From Cardiobacteriaceae bacterium TAE3-ERU3 (GTDB lineage Bacteria; Pseudomonadota; Gammaproteobacteria; Cardiobacteriales; Cardiobacteriaceae): 64,000 bases of DNA. The notes under the pieces are model-generated. The model had not been told where the DNA came from. It saw only the letters and a program-made list of their open reading frames with translations, and ran no database searches. Location of the stretch: positions 293,722-357,721 of the forward strand of contig JAHUUI010000001.1 in the NCBI GenBank assembly GCA_019218315.1, in the 5' to 3' direction. Position numbers and translations under genes: made by a program. Of the stretch, positions 2,755-32,520 are shown piece by piece; within the stretch, counting starts at the first letter, position 1, and each line of letters opens with the position of its first letter.

Positions 2755-4522
2755 GTCCACCACCGCACAGGTGGCTTAGAAAATCATGCTCAATAACAAG
2801 ACAAGCACCCTGATGTCCACCACCGCACAGGTGGCTTAGAAAATCCAAACTCACCACACCACACTGATTGAGGTGTCCACCACCGCACAGGTGGCTTAGA
2901 AAAAAAGGTGCTTTAACTTGTTGTGCTGGGATTTGTCCACCACCGCACAGGTGGCTTAGAAATTGCACGGACGCTTACGACGGGCGGCAATGTGGTCCAC
3001 CACCGCACAGGTGGCTTAGAAAAATGCCGGATAAGGAATGCCTGACGGCATAACGTCCACCACCGCACAGGTGGCTTAGAAAGTATTACCACGGCGCAGA
3101 CAAGGCGCGCGTCAGTCCACCACCGCACAGGTGGCTTAGAAACCCAAGTTTTATCGGGTGCCCCAGCCGATGCAGTCCACCACCGCACAGGTGGCTTAGA
3201 AAGGAACCGGGAACGGCAGTTATCACTGTAATCAGTCCACCACCGCACAGGTGGCTTAGAAATCGGCCAATAGCTGTGCAGCCAGCTCTCTGACGTCCAC
3301 CACCGCACAGGTGGCTTAGAAACAAGGTTGCCGATCAAAATCACTTTGTTGATGGTCCACCACCGCACAGGTGGCTTAGAAAGCCGCGTTATTGTCGCCA
3401 ACACGCCCAAGCTAGTCCACCACCGCACAGGTGGCTTAGAAATTGAATGTAATCTGACCCCGCACCTTCTGGCAGTCCACCACCGCACAGGTGGCTTAGA
3501 AAACATTGGGGATAAGGAAGTTAAGTTCCAGCCTGTCCACCACCGCACAGGTGGCTTAGAAAATCAGCAGTATCTTATTTTGAACAACGTCGCGGTCCAC
3601 CACCGCACAGGTGGCTTAGAAAGGCATTTTCACAGGTCCAGACGAAAAATCGCTGTCCACCACCGCACAGGTGGCTTAGAAACAGAAAATACGCTACCGA
3701 CAATATCCGCGCCTGTCCACCACCGCACAGGTGGCTTAGAAATGCGTCACAGAGTGCGCGATTGTCGCAGTGCAGTCCACCACCGCACAGGTGGCTTAGA
3801 AACACAGAGAACAGTCACTAACGGCCGTATTGAAGTCCACCACCGCACAGGTGGCTTAGAAATTGGGAAACTGTCTTTAAGTTGGCCTTAGTTTGTTCAC
3901 CACCGCACAGGTGGCTTAGAAAATCTTAACGCCCGACTTTGTGCGCTTCAGATAGTTCACCACCGCACAGGTGGCTTAGAAAGCCAACATCGCTCTCTTT
4001 CTTAGGGGCTGTATGTTCACCACCGCACAGGTGGCTTAGAAAATTTGATCGCTCATTGATACCCAGCTGTTCCAGTTCACCACCGCACAGGTGGCTTAGA
4101 AAAGTCGTTCAACTGTTTTGCCAATTTCTAAAATGTTCACCACCGCACAGGTGGCTTAGAAAAGCACGCCTGACGGATGATTAAAGCTGCTATCGTTCAC
4201 CACCGCACAGGTGGCTTAGAAAACCACAGCATCGCGCAATAGCTCACGATAGACGTTCACCACCGCACAGGTGGCTTAGAAAATGAGATCAGGGCGGCCG
4301 GTGGCGAGGTTGAGGTTCACCACCGCACAGGTGGCTTAGAAAATCAGCTTGGCGCTGTTCGTAGCCGTCGCCAAGTTCACCACCGCACAGGTGGCTTAGA
4401 AACTGAGCGAGCGCATTTGGGAGACGACGCACAGGTTCACCACCGCACAGGTGGCTTAGAAAAAGGCGAAATACCGCCGCGTGCCAACCACTCCGTTCAC
4501 CACCGCACAGGTGGCCTAGACC
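2755..4522 (+). CRISPR. Type I-F CRISPR array 1, 30 repeats and 29 spacers
   Basis: Twenty-eight-base repeats recur every 60 bases with 32-base spacers. The repeat stem is CCACC, loop GCACA, GGTGG, followed by the 8-base handle CTTAGAAA. The first 19 repeats (starts 2755 to 3835) begin GTCCAC; the last 11 (3895 to 4495) begin GTTCAC. The final repeat at 4495 is degenerate (GTGGCCTAGACC at its end), marking the trailer, so the leader is on the csy4 side and transcription runs rightward. No two spacers in this array looked alike to me. Several long open frames across the array are artefacts of its 60-base (20-codon) period. Confidence 0.98.
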
Positions 4523-4543
4523 TGTGCGATATATGGCTACTAA

Positions 4544-9657: not shown

Positions 9658-10853
9658 GCACTCACCACTACCTTAGCCATACGGCGCTTACCTACCGCGA
9701 CAATTGCATCAAAGCCAGCTTCAATCAAAAGGTTTTTATCTTCTACTTTCTCGCCATCAATCTTGACCGCGCCTTGCTTGAGCATGCGCAACCCTTCTGA
9801 AGTACTTGCGACCAAACCTGCGTCTTTCAGCATATTGGCAATAGGCATCGGCTCTGCGGCTTGTAGCGTAATCGTCTCCAAATCGTCAGGCACTTGGTTT
9901 TTCTGGAAGCGTGAGACAAATGCCTCTTGGGCATCCTGTGCCGCCTGCTCGTCGTGGAAACGCGCAACCAGTTCTTGCGCCAATTCAAATTTCACATCAC
10001 GCGGATTACGGCCATCAGCTACAGCCTGCTTCAGCCCCTCAATATCTTCAAGGCTGCGGAATGACAGCAACTCGAAATAGCGCCACATCAAATCATCAGA
10101 GATTGACATAATTTTGCCAAACATCTCATTTGCCGGCTCAAAAATGCCAATATAGTTACCGAGTGACTTACTCATCTTCTGTACGCCGTCCAAGCCTTCC
10201 AAAATAGGCATAGTCAGCACAGTTTGCGGCGCAAGCCCGTATTCACGCTGAATATCACGGCCAACCAGAAGGTTAAATTTCTGATCCGTACCGCCAAGCT
10301 CAACGTCAGCCTCCATTGCCACAGAGTCATACGCCTGAGTCAGTGGGTACAAAAATTCATGAATGGCAATCGAACGACCTTCTTTATAGCGCTTATTAAA
10401 GTCATCGCGTTCAAGCATGCGCGCCACGCTGTATTTTGCGGTCAAGCGAACCATATCAGCGGCTGTCATCGCGTTCATCCACTTTGAGTTAAAGCAGATT
10501 TCTGTCTTCTCCGGATCGAGAATTTTAAAAACTTGATCGGTATACGTGCGTGCATTTTCCTCGATCTGCTCACGCGAAAGTGGTGGGCGAGTCGCATTTT
10601 TACCAGAAGGATCACCAATCTGCGCCGTGAAATCACCAATCAGGAATAAAACCTTGTGCCCCAACTCCTGAAATTGGCGCAACTTATTCAGAACCACTGT
10701 ATGGCCGAAGTGCAAATCCGGCGCAGTTGGATCCATGCCCAGTTTCACGCGTAACGTCTTGCCCTCTTTAATGCGCTCAGCCAGCGCTTCTTCACCAATC
10801 AATTCATCAGCACCGCGACGAATCACGGCAAGTTGTTCTTCTAACGGGATCAT
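9654..10853 (-). CDS. tyrS: Tyrosyl-tRNA synthetase
   Basis: A 399-residue class I aminoacyl-tRNA synthetase that charges tRNA-Tyr. The HIGH-type motif is HFGHT (residues 48-52), KMSKS lies near residue 230, and the C-terminal 65 residues form an S4-type RNA-binding domain ([13 protein letters not shown]). An upstream extension is open to 10979, but the ATG at 10853 has AAGGAA ahead and gives the normal family N-terminus. It diverges from the M23 peptidase gene with 58 bases between the two starts. Confidence 0.95.
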
Positions 10854-18229: not shown

Positions 18230-19564
18230 TCAATGCTTGAGGAAATCACCCACATCAAGCAAAATCAGCTCATTGTCATCCGCCTGATTTGGCTCGCGGC
18301 TCGATGAAAACGGCAAGTTATTGTCGTTACCGACCACGATATGCTGATCGTCGATGACATCCACATTTTCAATCGTGAAGAACGGGAAGGTAAACACGCC
18401 ATCATTAAGTGGCTTACGCGCCACACCATTTGGGTCCTGAATATTCATCAGGTCGATATACGCCACCTTTTCAACCTCACCACCGCCTTCCGGCAAGCGC
18501 ACCTTATATACGCGCTTGAACTGCGCCGGCTTGTCAAAGCATTGCGTCGTATCTTCCGCACCTTCAGCACAGGCCTTATCTGCCGTACCTTCAAGGTTGT
18601 CACGCTCAATAATCAGGCCGTACTCTGCATCAATCATATTGAAATCGCCGATCGCGTAGGCATTGTCATCAAGCACGTATTGCCACGACGTACCGGTAAA
18701 CTCACCCTTGGCTGGATCAAAAGCGAGAATCCGCAGATAGTTTTTACCATCAACGTTTTCATACTCACCTTTTTCCACGTCATATAGCGTGCCTTCGAGC
18801 AACGGATAGAGCATGCTGCCATCCGGTGCTGCGGCCATGCCCTCAAATCCCTTCGAGCGCGATGAAGAAAATGCCAGCAACTCACCATCGGGCTTGCGTG
18901 GCAACGACAGCGCCGGATTATCCGGTGACTGCACCACCTTGCCATCAACCACCGTCTCATACACGGCCAAAACCTTGCCCTCCTTATCTACCTTAATCAG
19001 GTACGGACCAAATTCCTCGCCAAGCCAGAAATTGCCATCAATGACCTGAATACTCTCAAGGTCAAAATCGCTACCGGTCAAATAACGCGCGTCCGTACCT
19101 TCATGCACGATGCGCTGCGGCACGACTTTATCCGGATCGTGCAAAAAGACCGTTTCCAGCGGCTCAAACGTGCCCTTGTCATAATCGATCTGGTAACGGC
19201 GCCAGAACAATGCCGTATCCGGTGAATTGGCCTTACTGCCAAAGCCATTGTCAGTCAGCAACCATACTGAGCCATCATCATTGACGACAATCCCCGAATG
19301 CCCTTGCACCGGCTGACCCTCAAATGGTAACGACACACCTGTCGGGCGACCGCCTGATTTACCCTCGACGCTGCCAATCTCATCGACGCGCACGCCGGTT
19401 GTAAACTTGCCGCTGATCTTTAAATCAGCAGGCGCATCTTCCGGTACATCCAAATAGGTTTCAGCTGGCAATAGCGCATGCCCCGCCAAAGTCGCCGTAA
19501 ATTCCTCTGCTGCTTGCACGTGAGCTACCGCCAGAGCAATTGCTGCGGTCAGTAATTTTTTCAT
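18230..19564 (-). CDS. Secreted phytase-like esterase-domain protein, first copy
   Basis: A 444-residue exported protein. It has a signal peptide ending VAHVQAAEE and the 'esterase-like activity of phytase' fold: GHSGIVV and LLTDNGFGSK early on, the FDLESIQV and GEEFGPYLIKV segments, GFEGMAAAPDGSMLYPLLEG near the centre, and INPNGV-like IQDPNGVARK towards the end. The domain forms a beta-propeller; whether it hydrolyses phytate, another phosphoester or only binds a ligand is not known from sequence. The ATG at 19564 follows AGGATC. A second, divergent copy lies at 20694-21968. Confidence 0.8.
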   Translation of the reverse strand: MKKLLTAAIALAVAHVQAAEEFTATLAGHALLPAETYLDVPEDAPADLKISGKFTTGVRVDEIGSVEGKSGGRPTGVSLPFEGQPVQGHSGIVVNDDGSVWLLTDNGFGSKANSPDTALFWRRYQIDYDKGTFEPLETVFLHDPDKVVPQRIVHEGTDARYLTGSDFDLESIQVIDGNFWLGEEFGPYLIKVDKEGKVLAVYETVVDGKVVQSPDNPALSLPRKPDGELLAFSSSRSKGFEGMAAAPDGSMLYPLLEGTLYDVEKGEYENVDGKNYLRILAFDPAKGEFTGTSWQYVLDDNAYAIGDFNMIDAEYGLIIERDNLEGTADKACAEGAEDTTQCFDKPAQFKRVYKVRLPEGGGEVEKVAYIDLMNIQDPNGVARKPLNDGVFTFPFFTIENVDVIDDQHIVVGNDNNLPFSSSREPNQADDNELILLDVGDFLKH

Positions 19565-19776
19565 GTTTGATCCTGTATAAGAAACACTGCGCATACCATA
19601 AAACGCCTGTGTAACCGTTTTATGTCAGAAAATACTTGTCGCTTTTTCGGTAGCGCAGCGGACAAACCGTAAGCTATAGTGGGACGCCAGAAAAACGTTT
19701 ACAGCACATAAAGACAAGCCTTTATGTTTATACGCTATAAAGCAATGTACTTTACCCCATTAAAAGCCCCCCAGCG

Positions 19777-20693: not shown

Positions 20694-21968
20694 CTATAAA
20701 GACAAATCCACTGGCAACACATACAGCCGTGCGCTGTCTATCTCGCCATTGGTAGGTAACATCTTTTGCGTCACCTTGCCTTTCTTATCCGAAGTTAGGG
20801 CAAAATCATCATCATTTAACACCGCCAGCTTGCCATCAGCAGTGAGGAACATACCCTCGAATTTCTCATGCGGATAATTCAGCGCTTCGACCAAATCCAC
20901 CGCCAGCTGTTTTTCTACCGGTTTGATGCCCGCGGCTTCCAGCTCTTCCCACGTTGATGCTTCAAGCGTCTTGCCATTAACCAGCAAACCATTTTCTGCA
21001 TCCACGTCGCCACCGACGTCAGTCGCACCTTTTAAATCAATTACATAAACGTGCTTTTGCGCAGGCTTGTCGCCACCGACAAACTTGCCATCGCGTTCAT
21101 CAACCAAAAAGCGGGTTGCGCCCAAAGCGCGAATTTCTGAATTGGAGAGATTGTCGTCGTTCTGGCGATAGAGATATTGATGTGTTTCGCCGCTGTCCAA
21201 ATTCAGCGTCACGATGCGGGTCAAGGTGCGGTTGGTTGCTTCGTCTTTGGACGGGTTATACATCGTCGATTGCATGATGCCGACCAGCGTCTTGTGATCC
21301 GGTGTGATTGCCAGCCCTTCCATACCGCGATTGGCGCGACGCTTGGCAAACACTGCCGGCAAGCTCAGCTCGCCACTGTTGGACTGCAAACCTTGTGGCG
21401 AAATACGCGCCAATTCCCGCCCTTCAGCATCGAAATGAACGATATGCGGGCCGTATTCATCGGAAACGTAAAACGAACCATCGGCCAGCACCACCAATCC
21501 TTCACCATCAAGACCGTATTGATCCGTACCCAGCTTATTGCCCTCACCATCAACCGCTTGCTCACCGGTTGCGCCAAAGCCTTTTGGATTAGGCAAGCCG
21601 GTTATCTTTTGCCCGTCAGGGTTGGTCAAGCCAATTTCCTTAACCAGCGTGATGTCGCCTTGATCTGATACTTCAAACAAGCCCACCGCTGGTTGATAAT
21701 CCGCCACCAGAAACTGCTTTTCGCCTTTGTTGGCACTGTCCGCATTTGGACCACGGTCAGTCAGCGCATAAAAGCGCTGGTTATTATTCGGATCAGCAAA
21801 CGCGGACGAACCATAGCCACCGTGGCGTATTTCTACCTTGCCGTCATCGAGACTACCCAACACCGTATAAGGCAACGCAGCACCTTGCTCTGCAATCGTA
21901 TTAAAACCGGCTAACGCACTACCACTGCTTGCCAATGCGCAAGCCAACACCAACAAACGAATTTTCAT
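20694..21968 (-). CDS. Secreted phytase-like esterase-domain protein, second copy
   Basis: A 424-residue exported protein with a signal peptide (cleavage after SGSALA). It shares the fold and key segments with the protein at 18230-19564: FYALTDRGPNAD, YVSDEYGPHIVHFD, GMEGLAITPDHKTLVGIMQS and LNDDDFALTSD near the end. GGGGTAA precedes the ATG. Its similarity to the first copy is limited to motifs, so the duplication is old or the genes arrived separately. Confidence 0.8.
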   Translation of the reverse strand: MKIRLLVLACALASSGSALAGFNTIAEQGAALPYTVLGSLDDGKVEIRHGGYGSSAFADPNNNQRFYALTDRGPNADSANKGEKQFLVADYQPAVGLFEVSDQGDITLVKEIGLTNPDGQKITGLPNPKGFGATGEQAVDGEGNKLGTDQYGLDGEGLVVLADGSFYVSDEYGPHIVHFDAEGRELARISPQGLQSNSGELSLPAVFAKRRANRGMEGLAITPDHKTLVGIMQSTMYNPSKDEATNRTLTRIVTLNLDSGETHQYLYRQNDDNLSNSEIRALGATRFLVDERDGKFVGGDKPAQKHVYVIDLKGATDVGGDVDAENGLLVNGKTLEASTWEELEAAGIKPVEKQLAVDLVEALNYPHEKFEGMFLTADGKLAVLNDDDFALTSDKKGKVTQKMLPTNGEIDSARLYVLPVDLSL

Positions 21969-27130: not shown

Positions 27131-28839
27131 GTTCACCGCCGCACAGGCGGCTTAGAAACAAGCCACGCAAGCGTGGTGACGCATATCGTAGTTCACCGCC
27201 GCACAGGCGGCTTAGAAAAGAGGGTTTATCCGTGATTGTTAGTGCATTTGGTTCACCGCCGCACAGGCGGCTTAGAAAAGCTAATGGCCTGAAGGGTAAA
27301 GTTGAAGATAGTTCACCGCCGCACAGGCGGCTTAGAAAAAAAGTTTTGTTTCATAAATCACCTTTTTAGAGTTCACCGCCGCACAGGCGGCTTAGAAATG
27401 TTAGGCTCTGTGCGCTTTTCTGCTTCTCTCGTTCACCGCCGCACAGGCGGCTTAGAAAAGCCCAAGAGGTGGACGGCAAAGACTCACGAAGTTCACCGCC
27501 GCACAGGCGGCTTAGAAAATCACAAGCGGCCTAGAGGCGTTAATTGCTTCGTTCACCGCCGCACAGGCGGCTTAGAAAACATGCGCAAATGTGGCGGGTT
27601 CACCTGAATAGTTCACCGCCGCACAGGCGGCTTAGAAAGTAACCAGTGTTCGCCGCCGTAACGGGTCGTTGTTCACCGCCGCACAGGCGGCTTAGAAAGG
27701 ACGTGCGATGCCGGGCTGGCAATCAATTGTGTTCACCGCCGCACAGGCGGCTTAGAAAAGTCGAATAAACTTGATTGGAAGGCAAACCAGGTTCACCGCC
27801 GCACAGGCGGCTTAGAAATGTGAACCTCCATATCTGTTATACGCTTATCTGTTCACCGCCGCACAGGCGGCTTAGAAAAAGAAATTAACGTCAGACAAAC
27901 AGACCATATAGTTCACCGCCGCACAGGCGGCTTAGAAATCGGCAATGTGCGCCGCTTTCAGCGTCTTGCCGTTCACCGCCGCACAGGCGGCTTAGAAAGA
28001 AAAACAATCACCCGATGGATGAAAGTGGGAGTTCACCGCCGCACAGGCGGCTTAGAAAGATGGGGATTAGCAACAGTGGAATATAAAATTGTTCACCGCC
28101 GCACAGGCGGCTTAGAAAGCTGATTGCACGTAGTGAATATCGAACAGGTCGTTCACCGCCGCACAGGCGGCTTAGAAAATAATATTGCCCCGTCACTGCC
28201 GCACTGTTGGGTTCACCGCCGCACAGGCGGCTTAGAAAATTACAAGCGGCCTTGAGGCGTTAATTGCTTCGTTCACCGCCGCACAGGCGGCTTAGAAATG
28301 AACCCAAAGTTAAGCGTTATTTATCCGCTTCGTTCACCGCCGCACAGGCGGCTTAGAAATGTAGGCGCACCAAAGATGTTTATCGAATCTTGTTCACCGC
28401 CGCACAGGCGGCTTAGAAAGCGCGAAGTGCGCGACCAGAAGCGCAAAGACAGTTCACCGCCGCACAGGCGGCTTAGAAAAATGAGGGCGATATCGCCTGA
28501 TGAATTGCCCCGTTCACCGCCGCACAGGCGGCTTAGAAAAGCTTCAACAGCTGCGGCGGTTGTTTCGTTATGTTCACCGCCGCACAGGCGGCTTAGAAAA
28601 TCCCCAATGATTCCAGCGTTGAGATTATCGAGTTCACCGCCGCACAGGCGGCTTAGAAACCTTTTTTTAAAGTTAATAGGATAATAACCTAGTTCACCGC
28701 CGCACAGGCGGCTTAGAAACACGGAAGCTGATCACAAAATTGTGTGATGCGGTTCACCGCCGCACAGGTGGCTTAGAAATCCAGCGCTTGCTTTAATACT
28801 GGCGCAATCGGCTTCACCACCGCACAGGTGGCTTAGGAA
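27131..28839 (+). CRISPR. Type I-F CRISPR array 2, 29 repeats and 28 spacers
   Basis: Twenty-eight-base repeats recur every 60 bases with 32-base spacers; spacer 20 (28299-28331) is 33 bases. The stem is CCGCC, loop GCACA, GGCGG, then handle CTTAGAAA. The repeat at 28752 has GCC with GGT (G8, T18), and the last, degenerate one at 28812 has A8 and T18 like array 1. These changes mark the trailer end, so the leader is on the left. Spacer 7 (27519-27550) and spacer 19 (28239-28270) are identical at 30 of 32 positions. No cas genes lie beside the array; it must be served by the machinery at the left end of the window. Confidence 0.98.
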
Positions 28840-28867: not shown

Positions 28868-29281
28868 CTACGGCTGCTTATCAAACGTTGGCATTCCTTC
28901 GGGAATCTCGACCCAATCAAGCTTTTCACTAACCCAGACATGCGCCGTCGGTGCGAATAGGCTATCGTCAGTAAGATGAACCGGCTTTAGCTTCAGTTTA
29001 ACTGTCGAAGTGTCATCAGGGTTGAAGTGATAAATTCGATTACCGCAATCGGGGCAGAATTTGGCGCTATTTAGGCGTCCACTGTCCGAAGAGCGCGTCC
29101 ATTCTTTCATCTCACCATAAAATTTAATTGCATCCACGGCAAAAATGGCGGTAATACTGTATGGCGCAGTCGAGAGCTTTTGGCATTCAGTGCAGTGGCA
29201 TGCCTGCACGCGCTGTGGTTTGGCAAGGATATCGTAAGAGACTTGCCCACATTGGCAAGATCCGTGGATAGGAAAATTCAT
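28868..29281 (-). CDS. GFA-domain (glutathione-dependent formaldehyde-activating type) protein
   Basis: A 137-residue protein with the zinc-binding pattern of the GFA/CENP-V fold: CQCG near residue 9, CHCTEC near 29-34 and CPDCG near 84-88. The enzyme that gave the family its name links glutathione and formaldehyde, but most members have no proven reaction. The ATG at 29281 follows AAGGAA; the open frame upstream to 29380 is not supported. The stop is 28 bases from the end of CRISPR array 2. Confidence 0.82.
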   Translation of the reverse strand: MNFPIHGSCQCGQVSYDILAKPQRVQACHCTECQKLSTAPYSITAIFAVDAIKFYGEMKEWTRSSDSGRLNSAKFCPDCGNRIYHFNPDDTSTVKLKLKPVHLTDDSLFAPTAHVWVSEKLDWVEIPEGMPTFDKQP

Positions 29282-29388: not shown

Positions 29389-30819
29389 ATGAACTGGCCG
29401 GAAATTACGCCTTACGATCTTAAGAACCACACACCATTTCGTGAGGAAAGTCAGTATTATCTGTCGCAAACAGAGCCTTACCGTCCGGAACTACACAAAT
29501 TCATCCTCGTTCTGGTAGGTATGAACCTGTTTCTTGGTGTATTTTTACTTGCGTTATGGGCCTTTCTCCATTCTGTTGCTCCAGAAAGTATTGATAGCGT
29601 AATGGATTTTTTACTTTATCTAGTCAGTAAAATCCCATTATTTATATTTTTCACGCTCAATCTTGCTGCTATCTTCTATTACGCACAACACTATTGGCAA
29701 ATTAGACACTTAAACCGCTTTTATCCACCGACTCTATATGCCGATAACGCACCTCAAAAGCATGGTACAAAACTGGAGTTTGAGTTTTACTTGAAGCCGC
29801 CAGAAGCCAAAATTGGCATCACATCAAGCGTGTGTGCGCGGATATTTTGCGAAGAAGCAACCAAGGTACAACGTGGAACAGACACCATCACTGAACGCCA
29901 TACACATTGGTCAGAGGTGCTTCCGATGCGTCAATTCAGTGCCGATACATCCGTCATCCGCTACCCGATTGCTGTTGTTCCACCAGCAGGGCTGCCTACA
30001 ACACTCAATCCATTGGTATGTGCAAGTGCAATTACAATTTGGCCGTTCCAAGCCGATTTACCTACTGTTTCCATTCGAGATGACCAATTCATGATTAAAA
30101 GCAGCGCTTGGAAGGCCGTCAATATATACGATTTACCGCAGCAATCGCCATTTGTTGCCGAGGGACGGCACTATCGCTCTGAAGCCACTTTACATAAGTT
30201 ATCGATCAAGCTTATGGTCATATGCACCGTCATCATGAACCTGATCCTTCTCCCTTTTACACTGCCACCATTATTTTCTTTCTTGGAACAAAAGCTAGCC
30301 ACGCCTAACGGCCACGGCGATACGTCACTCTTAGTCACTATTTCCATATCACTCGCATTCACCACCATCATCAACTTCTATATAGTCCGCCATATATATC
30401 GCCAACATAATAAACAGAAACGCTTGCAGCGTTTTACAGCGCCTACGCTCTACACCAGCAGCTCGAGCTTCCTACGAGGTACAAAACTACAAGCCACCTA
30501 CCAACTCAGATCACGTCGTGCGCGGATTGGTGAGGAAGTTGTCGTCACTGCGTGTGTACTTTGTGAAGAGGGCCTAAAAGTCACCCGGGGCACGATGACC
30601 CAGCTACAGCGCAAAGTACATTGGCAAATAGAGCTACCGCCGCAGCGCTTCAATGCCAACAATGCCGAAATCTACTATGACTTCAGCACAGCTCTCCCCG
30701 ACAACTTACCACCCACCATAAAAGGTGATGAGCACTGGGTACATTGGTGCGTGCATATCCGCATGCAATTTCCCAACGTCAAGCCAATTTATGTGCCCTT
30801 TCAACAGGACATTAATTGA
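29389..30819 (+). CDS. Fused pair of two-TM membrane proteins with arrestin-like beta domains
   Basis: A 476-residue frame that is really two paralogous units joined by a frameshift. Unit 1 (residues 1 to about 205) has membrane segments near 37-62 and 73-98 and a beta-rich cytosolic domain. Unit 2 starts at Met235 (base 30091), with helices near 272-296 and 313-334 and the same domain, which ends in the pattern ALPDNLPP...HWCVHIRMQF. That pattern (LPxxLPPT, then W-x-V-x-V strands) resembles arrestin folds; this is my inference. In the other frame, bases 29999-30094 encode the missing end of unit 1 (HWYVQVQLQF) and stop with TGA overlapping the unit 2 ATG. A short deletion near 30000 thus fused two ATGA-coupled genes and left residues 206-234 as missense. 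AAGGA precedes the ATG at 29389. Confidence 0.75.
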   Translation: MNWPEITPYDLKNHTPFREESQYYLSQTEPYRPELHKFILVLVGMNLFLGVFLLALWAFLHSVAPESIDSVMDFLLYLVSKIPLFIFFTLNLAAIFYYAQHYWQIRHLNRFYPPTLYADNAPQKHGTKLEFEFYLKPPEAKIGITSSVCARIFCEEATKVQRGTDTITERHTHWSEVLPMRQFSADTSVIRYPIAVVPPAGLPTTLNPLVCASAITIWPFQADLPTVSIRDDQFMIKSSAWKAVNIYDLPQQSPFVAEGRHYRSEATLHKLSIKLMVICTVIMNLILLPFTLPPLFSFLEQKLATPNGHGDTSLLVTISISLAFTTIINFYIVRHIYRQHNKQKRLQRFTAPTLYTSSSSFLRGTKLQATYQLRSRRARIGEEVVVTACVLCEEGLKVTRGTMTQLQRKVHWQIELPPQRFNANNAEIYYDFSTALPDNLPPTIKGDEHWVHWCVHIRMQFPNVKPIYVPFQQDIN

Positions 30820-31499
30820 TGAAGCAAACAAGCTGGCCCACCATAAAACACAATGAATACCGCAGCCAAACACCATTCATACACGATGGTCAGCGCTATA
30901 TCACACAGGCGAAAGTTGCCGCAGATGACCCCATTTGGCCGCTGACTATCGTGGCACTACTCGCCGTTGTACCACTATTCTTACCCATTGATAAGCTGCT
31001 CAATCTTGGCAGAACGTTCAGCAACACTCTTTGGTACATCACCCTGCTTGGCTTCGCCGGATACAGCTGGCAAAGCCTGCAATTCAATAACCGACTCAAA
31101 CGCTTTAAGCGCTTTTCCCCTCACACATTGGCGATGATTCGCAACAGCTGGAGCAGTGGTGAAGTATTTATGTGCGAATACCTACTGACACCACTAAAAG
31201 GGCAAATCGGTGAACCAATAGATGTGTCTGCACGCATCGTCTGTCAGGAAGAAGTTGAGGTCGAGCGTGGTACCGAAACAGCATATAAAATCAACGAACG
31301 CTGGGCGATCACACAGCCCAAAAAGCGCTTCTTAAGTAAAGACACTGGCATTCGCTACACCATCGAAGAAGAGCTTCCGGCTGAGCTATCGTCCAGTATT
31401 CGCAGCGCCAAACACCAACTACACTGGTACGTGCAAATCCGCCTCGATTGTGTACGTAATCCGCCATTTTTTGTCGTCTTCCGCATCAATGTCAGTTAG
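30819..31499 (+). CDS. Two-TM membrane protein with arrestin-like beta domain, third paralogue
   Basis: A 226-residue protein built like the two units of the preceding gene: an N-terminal TPFIHDGQRY motif (HTPF and QSPF in the paralogues), two membrane segments (about 40-60 and 70-88) and a beta-rich domain with GQIGEPIDVSARIVCQEE, VERGTE and HWYVQIRLD. Cys-Glu-Glu and RGT motifs are shared by all three copies. The ATG at 30819 shares one base with the upstream stop (TGATG), which shows tight coupling. It is intact. The function is unknown; the repeats suggest the three proteins form a hetero-oligomer in the membrane. Confidence 0.75.
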   Translation: MKQTSWPTIKHNEYRSQTPFIHDGQRYITQAKVAADDPIWPLTIVALLAVVPLFLPIDKLLNLGRTFSNTLWYITLLGFAGYSWQSLQFNNRLKRFKRFSPHTLAMIRNSWSSGEVFMCEYLLTPLKGQIGEPIDVSARIVCQEEVEVERGTETAYKINERWAITQPKKRFLSKDTGIRYTIEEELPAELSSSIRSAKHQLHWYVQIRLDCVRNPPFFVVFRINVS

Positions 31500-32520
31500 C
31501 CACCCACTGACTACACAATCAGCATACCGCCCCGGCGATAGCCTGCTCGGGCAAACCACACCCAACACTCTCGTTATCCTGCAAAAACGCAGTGAAGACT
31601 TTGCCGGCTGTAACGTTGACGACATCGCCACCACCCATGCCGATGCCAGCGGCCAATTTACCCTGCCAATACCCACCGATGCACAGCCAACCTACAACGG
31701 CCAGCTATTCCGCATCCTGTGGCAAATCACCGATGGTAATACTTGCCAAAGCATCACCCTGTCCACAGACGGGCAACCCATACCCGACCCTTATCAACGC
31801 ATCGGCTTATATGGTAATCCGTTTGTTGCCGAACCGTATAATCGAACCACTGCGGCACCGGACATCCCACCAACCCTGTGGCTGGATAGAGGCTTTTCCC
31901 AAGCCCCGAAACCCAAGCAAAGCCAACTGGTGCAAATCATCGGCGTCAAAGGTGCAGGCAAATCCTCACACCTCGCACAGTGGCGCAAACAGCAACACGG
32001 CGCAATCCAATACTACCCGCCGCCCAACGCCATGCTAAAGCGGCTTGCCGCGTACAAAAACATCCTGCCTGACAACGCCCTGCTCTACATTGCCAGCTGC
32101 CTATCGCGCAGCACATGGCAACGCCCGCCAGTCGGCGACATCTGCTATTGGGATGAAGCTTGCCGCATTCCCCTACCATCGCTATTACTCGCCCTGTGGC
32201 GTGGCAAACGACAGCGGGCCACCATCTGCGCTGGTACCCACCGTGATCTATCGCGATGGGCAAAACTCTTTGGCCTAAACGTCACCACCATCTCACTCGA
32301 TGGCTTTAGCTGTGACGAACTGCAACAATGGGCAAATGCGCGCATCAAAGCTGCCCGCATCAGTGACAACCCCGATCCTTCATACAACTTCCCGCAAACC
32401 CTGCCACCCGACATCGCCGCATACATCACCAAACAGGCACAAGGATCATGGCGCGAAGCAACGGCACTACTGCATGTTTGGGCGGCAAAGCAAGTGAAGA
32501 AAAGAGATGATGACAGCTAG
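31489..32520 (+). CDS. P-loop NTPase with arrestin-like N-terminal domain
   Basis: A 343-residue protein. Residues 1 to about 98 look like another small beta-sandwich (YRPGDSLLGQ, then FTLPIPTDAQPTYNG and LFRILWQI). After a GLYGNPF motif comes an ATPase core: Walker A GVKGAGKS (152-159), Walker B-like ICYWDEA (about 218-224), and a sensor-like ICAGTHRDL near 242. The core recalls STAND/ExeA-type AAA ATPases, but I cannot assign a family. It is soluble and overlaps the upstream membrane protein gene by 11 bases, so the NTPase is likely to act with those membrane proteins. A GTG at 31450 is an alternative start. Confidence 0.75.
   Translation: MSVSHPLTTQSAYRPGDSLLGQTTPNTLVILQKRSEDFAGCNVDDIATTHADASGQFTLPIPTDAQPTYNGQLFRILWQITDGNTCQSITLSTDGQPIPDPYQRIGLYGNPFVAEPYNRTTAAPDIPPTLWLDRGFSQAPKPKQSQLVQIIGVKGAGKSSHLAQWRKQQHGAIQYYPPPNAMLKRLAAYKNILPDNALLYIASCLSRSTWQRPPVGDICYWDEACRIPLPSLLLALWRGKRQRATICAGTHRDLSRWAKLFGLNVTTISLDGFSCDELQQWANARIKAARISDNPDPSYNFPQTLPPDIAAYITKQAQGSWREATALLHVWAAKQVKKRDDDS

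What the first reader, a model, noticed from the sequence alone, without database searches (positions are those of the whole stretch)
29389..32520. Candidate uncharacterised membrane/NTPase system beside CRISPR array 2
Three consecutive coupled frames encode tandem copies of a two-helix membrane protein with a beta-rich C-terminal domain and a P-loop NTPase. The domain ends LPxxLPPT...HWxVxI, a pattern I associate with arrestin-type sandwiches, and the NTPase N-terminus seems to have a related domain. All copies share an N-terminal (T/S)PF motif, a CEE or CQE motif and an RGT motif. Repeated membrane paralogues plus a STAND/AAA-like ATPase is a plan seen in sensing or defence systems. I know of no described system with this composition; it lies between a CRISPR array and a photolyase gene.
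Basis: inference. Interest (0 to 1): 0.8.

Follow-up and report, generated by a model that had tools for sequence, protein, structure and literature searches.

The report
Arrestin-like membrane proteins with an ATPase
A rare bacterial gene cluster makes several small membrane proteins with an arrestin-like domain plus an ATP-driven partner; a similar cluster sits beside a CRISPR system on a cyanobacterial plasmid, so it is a real but unexplained module, perhaps for defence against viruses.

Summary
The operon is four genes, not three: membrane copies 1, 2 and 3 and an ATPase, with overlapping junctions. Copy 1 carries an out-of-frame deletion, so the 476-aa ORF is a chance fusion of copies 1 and 2. 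The membrane proteins are two-helix hairpins with a C-terminal arrestin-clan sandwich: the first 17 Foldseek PDB hits are arrestin-clan chains. The ATPase has Walker A and B and resembles ExeA/GspA-type AAA+ proteins, only suggestively. No model in Pfam, NCBIfam, PADLOC or PHROGs matches above its cut-off or convincingly. The key find is a second locus, on Anabaena cylindrica plasmid pANACY.03: membrane protein, small beta protein (the ATPase's N-terminal domain as its own gene) and the ATPase, interrupted by a transposase gene. It adjoins a type III-B CRISPR-Cas locus with a CARF-WYL regulator. So the gene set is conserved across phyla, yet none of several hundred other Pseudomonadota genomes searched carries it. 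Best reading: a mobile inner-membrane AAA+/arrestin module, more likely defence or envelope conflict than housekeeping. No function is shown; only two loci are known, and both have a broken gene.

The parts
29389..30094 (+). Membrane copy 1: two-helix hairpin plus arrestin-like domain, broken by an out-of-frame deletion near 30000-30016
   Evidence: frame 1 matches copy 2 (E 4e-29) up to LPTTLN; the other frame matches the C-termini of copies 2 and 3 (E 5e-6 each)
30091..30819 (+). Membrane copy 2 (242 aa), intact; its ATG overlaps the copy 1 stop
   Evidence: tblastn to the Anabaena protein E 2e-2 in all plasmids; BLASTP 5e-10 pairwise
30819..31499 (+). Membrane copy 3 (226 aa), intact; ATG overlaps the copy 2 stop (TGATG)
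   Evidence: (AlphaFold2 model)
31489..32520 (+). ATPase (343 aa); ATG lies inside the end of copy 3
   Evidence: 47.5% identity over 36% of the protein to Anabaena, E 6e-21
31489..31788 (+). N-terminal beta-rich domain of the ATPase, a separate gene in Anabaena
   Evidence: BLASTP 2e-6 to L008:7503-7853
31942..31968 (+). Walker A motif GVKGAGKSS
   Evidence: Sequence
32152..32157 (+). Walker B acidic pair DE in YWDEA
   Evidence: Sequence; invariant with Anabaena
28868..29281 (-). GFA-family gene between array 2 and the operon (neighbour, not part of the system)
   Evidence: PF04828, E 5.9e-25
27131..28839 (.). CRISPR array 2, type I-F-like repeats (neighbour)

Best explanation
A rare, horizontally transferred inner-membrane module. 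Each membrane protein is a helical hairpin that carries an arrestin-like sandwich, most likely in the cytosol. A cytosolic AAA+ ATPase, with a beta-rich docking domain at its N-terminus (a separate small protein in Anabaena), assembles on these sandwiches. I infer that the ATPase senses or is loaded by a trigger and uses ATP to rearrange the membrane hairpins, perturbing the membrane of a stressed or infected cell, as an accessory defence or conflict module. Shown here: gene set, predicted arrestin fold, Walker motifs, conservation of the set across two phyla, rarity in Pseudomonadota, CRISPR adjacency in both loci. Inferred: topology, complex formation, membrane perturbation, defence role.
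For: The set membrane protein + beta domain + ATPase recurs in Anabaena cylindrica pANACY.03. The beta domain is fused to the ATPase in the window and separate in Anabaena, which suggests they work together. Arrestin fold: Foldseek ranks 1-17 are TXNIP, ARRDC3, Spo0M and ARRD-6 chains (best E 9e-6); VIA Z 9.0 ARRD-6 and 8.7 Spo0M; Arrestin_N E 1.5e-4 for the Anabaena domain alone. Basic segment after helix 2 in all three window copies (net +2, +5, +5) suggests a cytosolic C-terminal domain. Sporadic distribution: own genome only among 398, 369 and 96 genomes; 0 of 385 in another class. The Anabaena operon adjoins a type III-B locus, a 32-repeat array and a CARF-WYL gene (PADLOC E 8.9e-78), and the plasmid stretch also carries CHAT and MoxR genes; the window operon adjoins CRISPR array 2.
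Against: No direct evidence of defence. Two loci are too few for an enrichment test, and CRISPR adjacency may reflect how windows or findings were picked. Window neighbours are mostly housekeeping genes. Both loci carry a broken gene, so neither is proven active. The topology rests on charge counts and hydropathy only; net charge of N-termini and loops is close to zero or mixed. The ATPase model failed (pLDDT 36), and its AAA+ class is only suggestive.
Confidence: 0.42

Rival explanations
1. An envelope-assembly or membrane-protein handling module. An ExeA/GspA-type ATPase with membrane partners scaffolds or loads some envelope complex, and the arrestin domains act as adaptors that bind membrane-protein tails.
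For: hhalign aligns the ATPase with 29 ExeA-like proteins along its whole length (GL..NPF, Walker A, DEA, DEL..W..R), E 1.5e-5 in one setting; in another the score is 21.9 against a maximum of 15.0 in 200 column shuffles. ExeA forms a complex with ExeB (PMC4098917, abstract start seen in the listing). Eukaryotic arrestins handle membrane receptors (PMC2515105, passages).
Against: A rare, cross-phylum, plasmid-borne distribution is unusual for envelope housekeeping. No secretion genes adjoin either locus in what I read. The ExeA link is weak: hmmsearch not above shuffles, and an ABC ATPase scores P 9e-4 on Walker A alone.
Confidence: 0.28
2. A ligand-gated channel-like module: two-helix subunits with a cytosolic beta domain form a pore, as in Kir channels or Csx23, and the ATPase regulates it.
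For: KirBac3.1 and a Magnetospirillum K+ channel appear in the Foldseek list from rank 22 (E about 1e-3). Csx23 has two helices followed by a cytosolic sensing domain and forms tetramers (PMC11014256, passages). Three paralogues could make a hetero-oligomer (inference).
Against: No K+ channel selectivity filter in the short helix-helix loops (loops listed; filter motif recalled). Kir hits rank below arrestins, and the beta sandwich alone may explain them.
Confidence: 0.15
3. A decaying remnant of a mobile operon with no present function.
For: Copy 1 is frameshifted; the Anabaena ATPase is split by a transposase-like ORF; no carriers among near relatives.
Against: Copies 2, 3 and the ATPase are open with no stop, and motifs are kept; the out-of-frame C-terminus of copy 1 is not yet eroded, so the damage looks recent or is an assembly error.
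Confidence: 0.15

Closest known systems
Spo0M and alpha-arrestins (TXNIP, ARRDC3), arrestin clan
   Same: Same sandwich fold by predicted structure and weak Arrestin_N similarity.
   Different: Arrestins and Spo0M are soluble (recalled); here one sandwich is attached to a two-helix membrane hairpin and sits in an operon with an ATPase.
ExeA/GspA-type AAA+ ATPases
   Same: Possible co-linear motifs from GL..NPF through Walker A and B to the lid.
   Different: No TIGR03015 match in the own genome at 1e-10; no Pfam hit at all, so no peptidoglycan-binding domain found; a beta-rich N-terminal domain instead.
Csx23 and Cam1, CRISPR membrane effectors
   Same: Small membrane hairpin or helix plus cytosolic domain near CRISPR-Cas (PMC11014256 and PMC10808066, passages).
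   Different: Arrestin-like domain instead of a cyclic-nucleotide sensor; an ATPase partner; no convincing match to any PADLOC model.
Kir-type potassium channels
   Same: Two helices followed by a beta domain; appear in the Foldseek list.
   Different: No selectivity filter in the loops.

Membership tests
Arrestin clan (fold) | Arrestin-type beta sandwich | tested here: met
   AlphaFold2 model from 3 sequences, beta domain blocks mostly pLDDT 70-84; Foldseek ranks 1-17 all arrestin clan, best E 9e-6; VIA Z 8.7-9.0, just above the 7-8 that is typical without relation
Arrestin (Pfam Arrestin_N) | Score above Pfam's curated cut-off | tested here: not met
   Anabaena domain 22.2 bits, copy 2 13.6 bits, cut-off 24.9
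Arrestin proper | Two arrestin domains, N and C lobes, in one soluble protein | tested here: not met
   One sandwich after a membrane hairpin per copy
ExeA/GspA-type AAA+ | Whole-length profile similarity | tested here: inconclusive
   hhalign E 1.5e-5, and score above all 200 column shuffles, but hmmsearch at shuffle level and decoy ABC P 9e-4
ExeA/GspA-type AAA+ | Match to NCBIfam TIGR03015 | tested here: not met
   Own genome: 22 of 22 candidates scored, none at E 1e-10; no such hit
STAND NTPase | STAND-specific motifs | not tested
   No Pfam hit to any NTPase family at E up to 10; no STAND profile built
Known defence systems in PADLOC | Match to a PADLOC-DB model | tested here: not met
   Window proteins: one weak E1-E2 hit at E 0.032; the four Anabaena pieces of the system: none at 0.1
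Csx23-like CRISPR effector | Two N-terminal membrane helices and a cytosolic C-terminal domain | tested here: inconclusive
   Same order of parts, side of the membrane only inferred from charge
Csx23-like CRISPR effector | Cyclic tetra-adenylate binding | not testable with these tools
   Needs a binding assay
Kir channel | Selectivity filter between the helices | tested here: not met
   Loops read directly; filter motif recalled, not from a call

The most novel reading that the evidence does not exclude
A new CRISPR-linked accessory immune module in which an AAA+ ATPase docks, through a beta-rich domain, on membrane hairpins with arrestin-type sandwiches and, when triggered by CRISPR or infection signals, drives them to open or disrupt the inner membrane: a bacterial use of the arrestin fold in immunity.
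Probability: 0.12. Interest if true: 0.85.

Novelty: new variant of a known kind. Interest (0 to 1): 0.55.

Why it matters
If the reading is right, bacteria pair membrane-anchored arrestin-fold domains with an AAA+ ATPase, an arrangement I found in none of the family libraries searched nor in the paper searches. It would link the arrestin fold, known for handling membrane proteins in eukaryotes, to bacterial membrane-level defence or envelope control. The two intact membrane genes and the ATPase give a compact system that can be tested directly.

Tried and rejected
Homologue searches that found nothing more: genome contigs twice (29 and 45 pattern matches, none confirmed; the second used only two poor patterns, so absence there is weak evidence); viral contigs with ATPase, Anabaena ATPase C-half, Anabaena membrane protein and copy 2; phages by tblastn; plasmids with copy 3 (no match) and with four Anabaena pieces (only pANACY.03 itself). 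Weak membrane-profile hits in 10 other genomes (E 1e-3 to 8e-3) cover mostly the helices or short stretches; I opened one (L019), which shows no such gene, and set aside the other nine unopened as likely chance.

Synteny: the neighbouring peptidase gene is in 1 of 11 genus and family relatives, but its surroundings there show neither photolyase nor operon, so no empty site could be shown.

ATPase structure: single-sequence AlphaFold2 gave pLDDT 36 and was not used. BFVD gave no hit under 1e-3. PDB sequence searches gave nothing meaningful. The first ExeA script read many loci on the wrong strand (18 of 30 kept); it was discarded and redone with 29 of 30. ExeA decoys: ABC P 9e-4 on Walker A only, MoxR P 0.011; single ExeA-like sequences range from 1.2e-4 to 0.016 (29 of 29), so the ExeA assignment stays suggestive.

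Considered and rejected: programmed frameshift in copy 1 (several codons are missing relative to copies 2, 3 and Anabaena, which fits a deletion rather than slippage); the operon as part of the I-F locus (cas genes lie about 25 kb away).
Full report
What is there. The interval 29389-32520 holds, on the plus strand, three open frames. The first (476 aa) is two copies of one protein, the second (226 aa) a third copy, the last (343 aa from ATG 31489) a P-loop ATPase. Copies 2 and 3 align end to end at 26% identity (E 7e-27), and copy 1 with copy 2 at 33% (E 4e-29). This is far beyond chance.

A correction. Copy 1 is broken. Its main frame follows copy 2 up to LPTTLN and then turns to unrelated sequence. 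A second frame carries HSIHWYVQVQLQFGRSKPIYLLF, which matches the ends of copies 2 and 3 (E 5e-6 each). That frame ends in a TGA at 30092-30094 that overlaps an ATG at 30091-30093, the natural start of copy 2. All four genes are thus joined by short overlaps (ATGA, TGATG, and an 11-base overlap before the ATPase). Relatives have about seven residues between LPxT and HW where copy 1 has room for one or two, so a small out-of-frame deletion is the simplest cause; an assembly error is not excluded. The 476-aa protein is a by-product.

The membrane proteins. Hydropathy gives two hydrophobic segments in copies 1 and 2 and one clear one in copy 3. AlphaFold2, fed with the three copies, gives two helices and a beta sandwich (mean pLDDT 63; most beta blocks 70-84; N-terminal 41 residues unreliable). 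Foldseek against the PDB puts arrestin-clan chains in ranks 1-17 (TXNIP, ARRDC3, Spo0M, ARRD-6; best E 9e-6, TM-scores modest at 0.29-0.39 of the query). VIA-align gives Z 9.0 for ARRD-6 and 8.7 for Spo0M, but unrelated sandwiches such as factor XIII follow at 8.5, so this second look does not separate them on its own. The sequence supports arrestin independently: Arrestin_N E 1.5e-4 for the Anabaena domain alone, below Pfam's cut-off but comparable with the E 9.9e-5 reported for B. subtilis Spo0M (PMC2515105, passages). KirBac channels also appear lower in the Foldseek list, but the helix-helix loops have no selectivity filter (motif recalled).

The ATPase. Walker A (GVKGAGKSS) and Walker B (YWDEA) are plain and conserved in Anabaena. 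No Pfam family matches, even at E 10. From memory the start GL..NPF suggested ExeA/GspA-type AAA+ ATPases. I collected 29 such proteins through TIGR03015 (29 of 30 loci usable). hhalign aligns the whole length co-linearly (E 1.5e-5 for a single comparison); in a second setting the score of 21.9 exceeds all 200 column shuffles (maximum 15.0). Against this, hmmsearch does not exceed shuffles, a plain ABC ATPase reaches P 9e-4 on Walker A alone, and single ExeA-like sequences scatter from 1.2e-4 to 0.016. I treat the class as likely AAA+, ExeA-like as suggestive. STAND was not tested.

The second locus. A tblastn of the ATPase against 72,556 plasmid records found one record, Anabaena cylindrica PCC 7122 plasmid pANACY.03 (47.5% identity over 36% of the query, E 6e-21). 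There, in order, lie a membrane protein of the same family (copy 2 finds it independently at E 2e-2 in the whole collection, whereas copy 3 did not at E 0.1; BLASTP 5e-10 and 8e-8 pairwise), a 117-aa protein equivalent to the ATPase's N-terminal domain (BLASTP 2e-6 for a single comparison) and the ATPase, interrupted by a 474-aa transposase-like ORF (transposase by my reading of the sequence, no family search run). A split or fused domain in the same gene order is good evidence that the parts work together. Upstream stand a CARF-WYL regulator (PADLOC E 8.9e-78), csx18, cas1, cas2, a 32-repeat array, cas10 and cmr genes; downstream are an integrase, a CHAT protein and a MoxR ATPase.

Distribution. 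In Pseudomonadota the system was seen in the own genome only: ATPase in 1 of 96 near and class relatives, 1 of 398 phylum-wide, 1 of 369 of the class, 0 of 385 in another class (no positive control in that set); membrane protein in 1 of 96, and in 398 genomes the own one plus 10 weak, probably chance hits. The draws overlap to an unknown extent. Other phyla could not be reached with the genome search, so the true range is unknown. Such a scattered pattern fits horizontal transfer. The GC content of the genes rises from 0.457 (copies 1+2) to 0.557 (ATPase) and does not settle it.

Neighbourhood of the window. The I-F cas genes and array 1 lie about 25 kb away at the window start and just upstream (only csy3 and csy4 were identified by Pfam, the others by position and start of sequence). 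No type III genes were recognised in those 16 kb, by eye only; the rest of the genome was not searched for them. Both known loci thus adjoin CRISPR loci of different types. With two loci, and possible selection of windows, this is a hint only.

How it may work. I propose that the hairpins sit in the inner membrane with the arrestin domains in the cytosol (basic residues after helix 2: +2, +5, +5), that the ATPase docks there through its own beta domain, and that ATP-driven rearrangement alters the membrane in response to infection or stress. Csx23 (two helices, cytosolic sensor, tetramer, membrane disruption; passages of PMC11014256) and Cam1 (depolarisation; passages of PMC10808066) show that such anatomy can serve immunity. 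They are analogues, not relatives. The main rival is an envelope-assembly or membrane-protein handling role in the manner of ExeA-ExeB (abstract start of PMC4098917).

Novelty. No library holds these proteins above its cut-offs or at a convincing score. Nine paper searches, within open-licence papers only, listed no paper that I recognised as describing such a system; two conflict-system papers searched for the term do not mention arrestin. I rate it a new variant of a known plan (ATPase plus membrane partners) with an unusual part, of good but unproven interest.

Noticed in passing
window 29389-30094: Copy 1 has an out-of-frame deletion that by chance fuses it in frame with copy 2.
   Followed up: yes
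L008:6280-6348 and 10408-10476: A 69-nt direct repeat (75% identical) brackets the Anabaena operon, perhaps traces of duplicated small genes or of insertion.
   Followed up: no
L008:8277-9701: A transposase-like ORF interrupts the Anabaena ATPase gene.
   Followed up: partly
window 2755-4525 and 27131-28839: Two type I-F-like arrays with slightly different repeats (GTCCACCACC... and GTTCACCGCC...); near the array 2 end at 28839 the repeats decay towards the array 1 form.
   Followed up: no
window 27491-27578 and 28211-28298: Two spacers of array 2 are nearly identical (98% over repeat-spacer-repeat), a likely duplication or repeated acquisition.
   Followed up: no
window 18230-19594 and 20694-21968: Two phytase-like esterase genes (PF13449) on the minus strand within 4 kb.
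   Followed up: no
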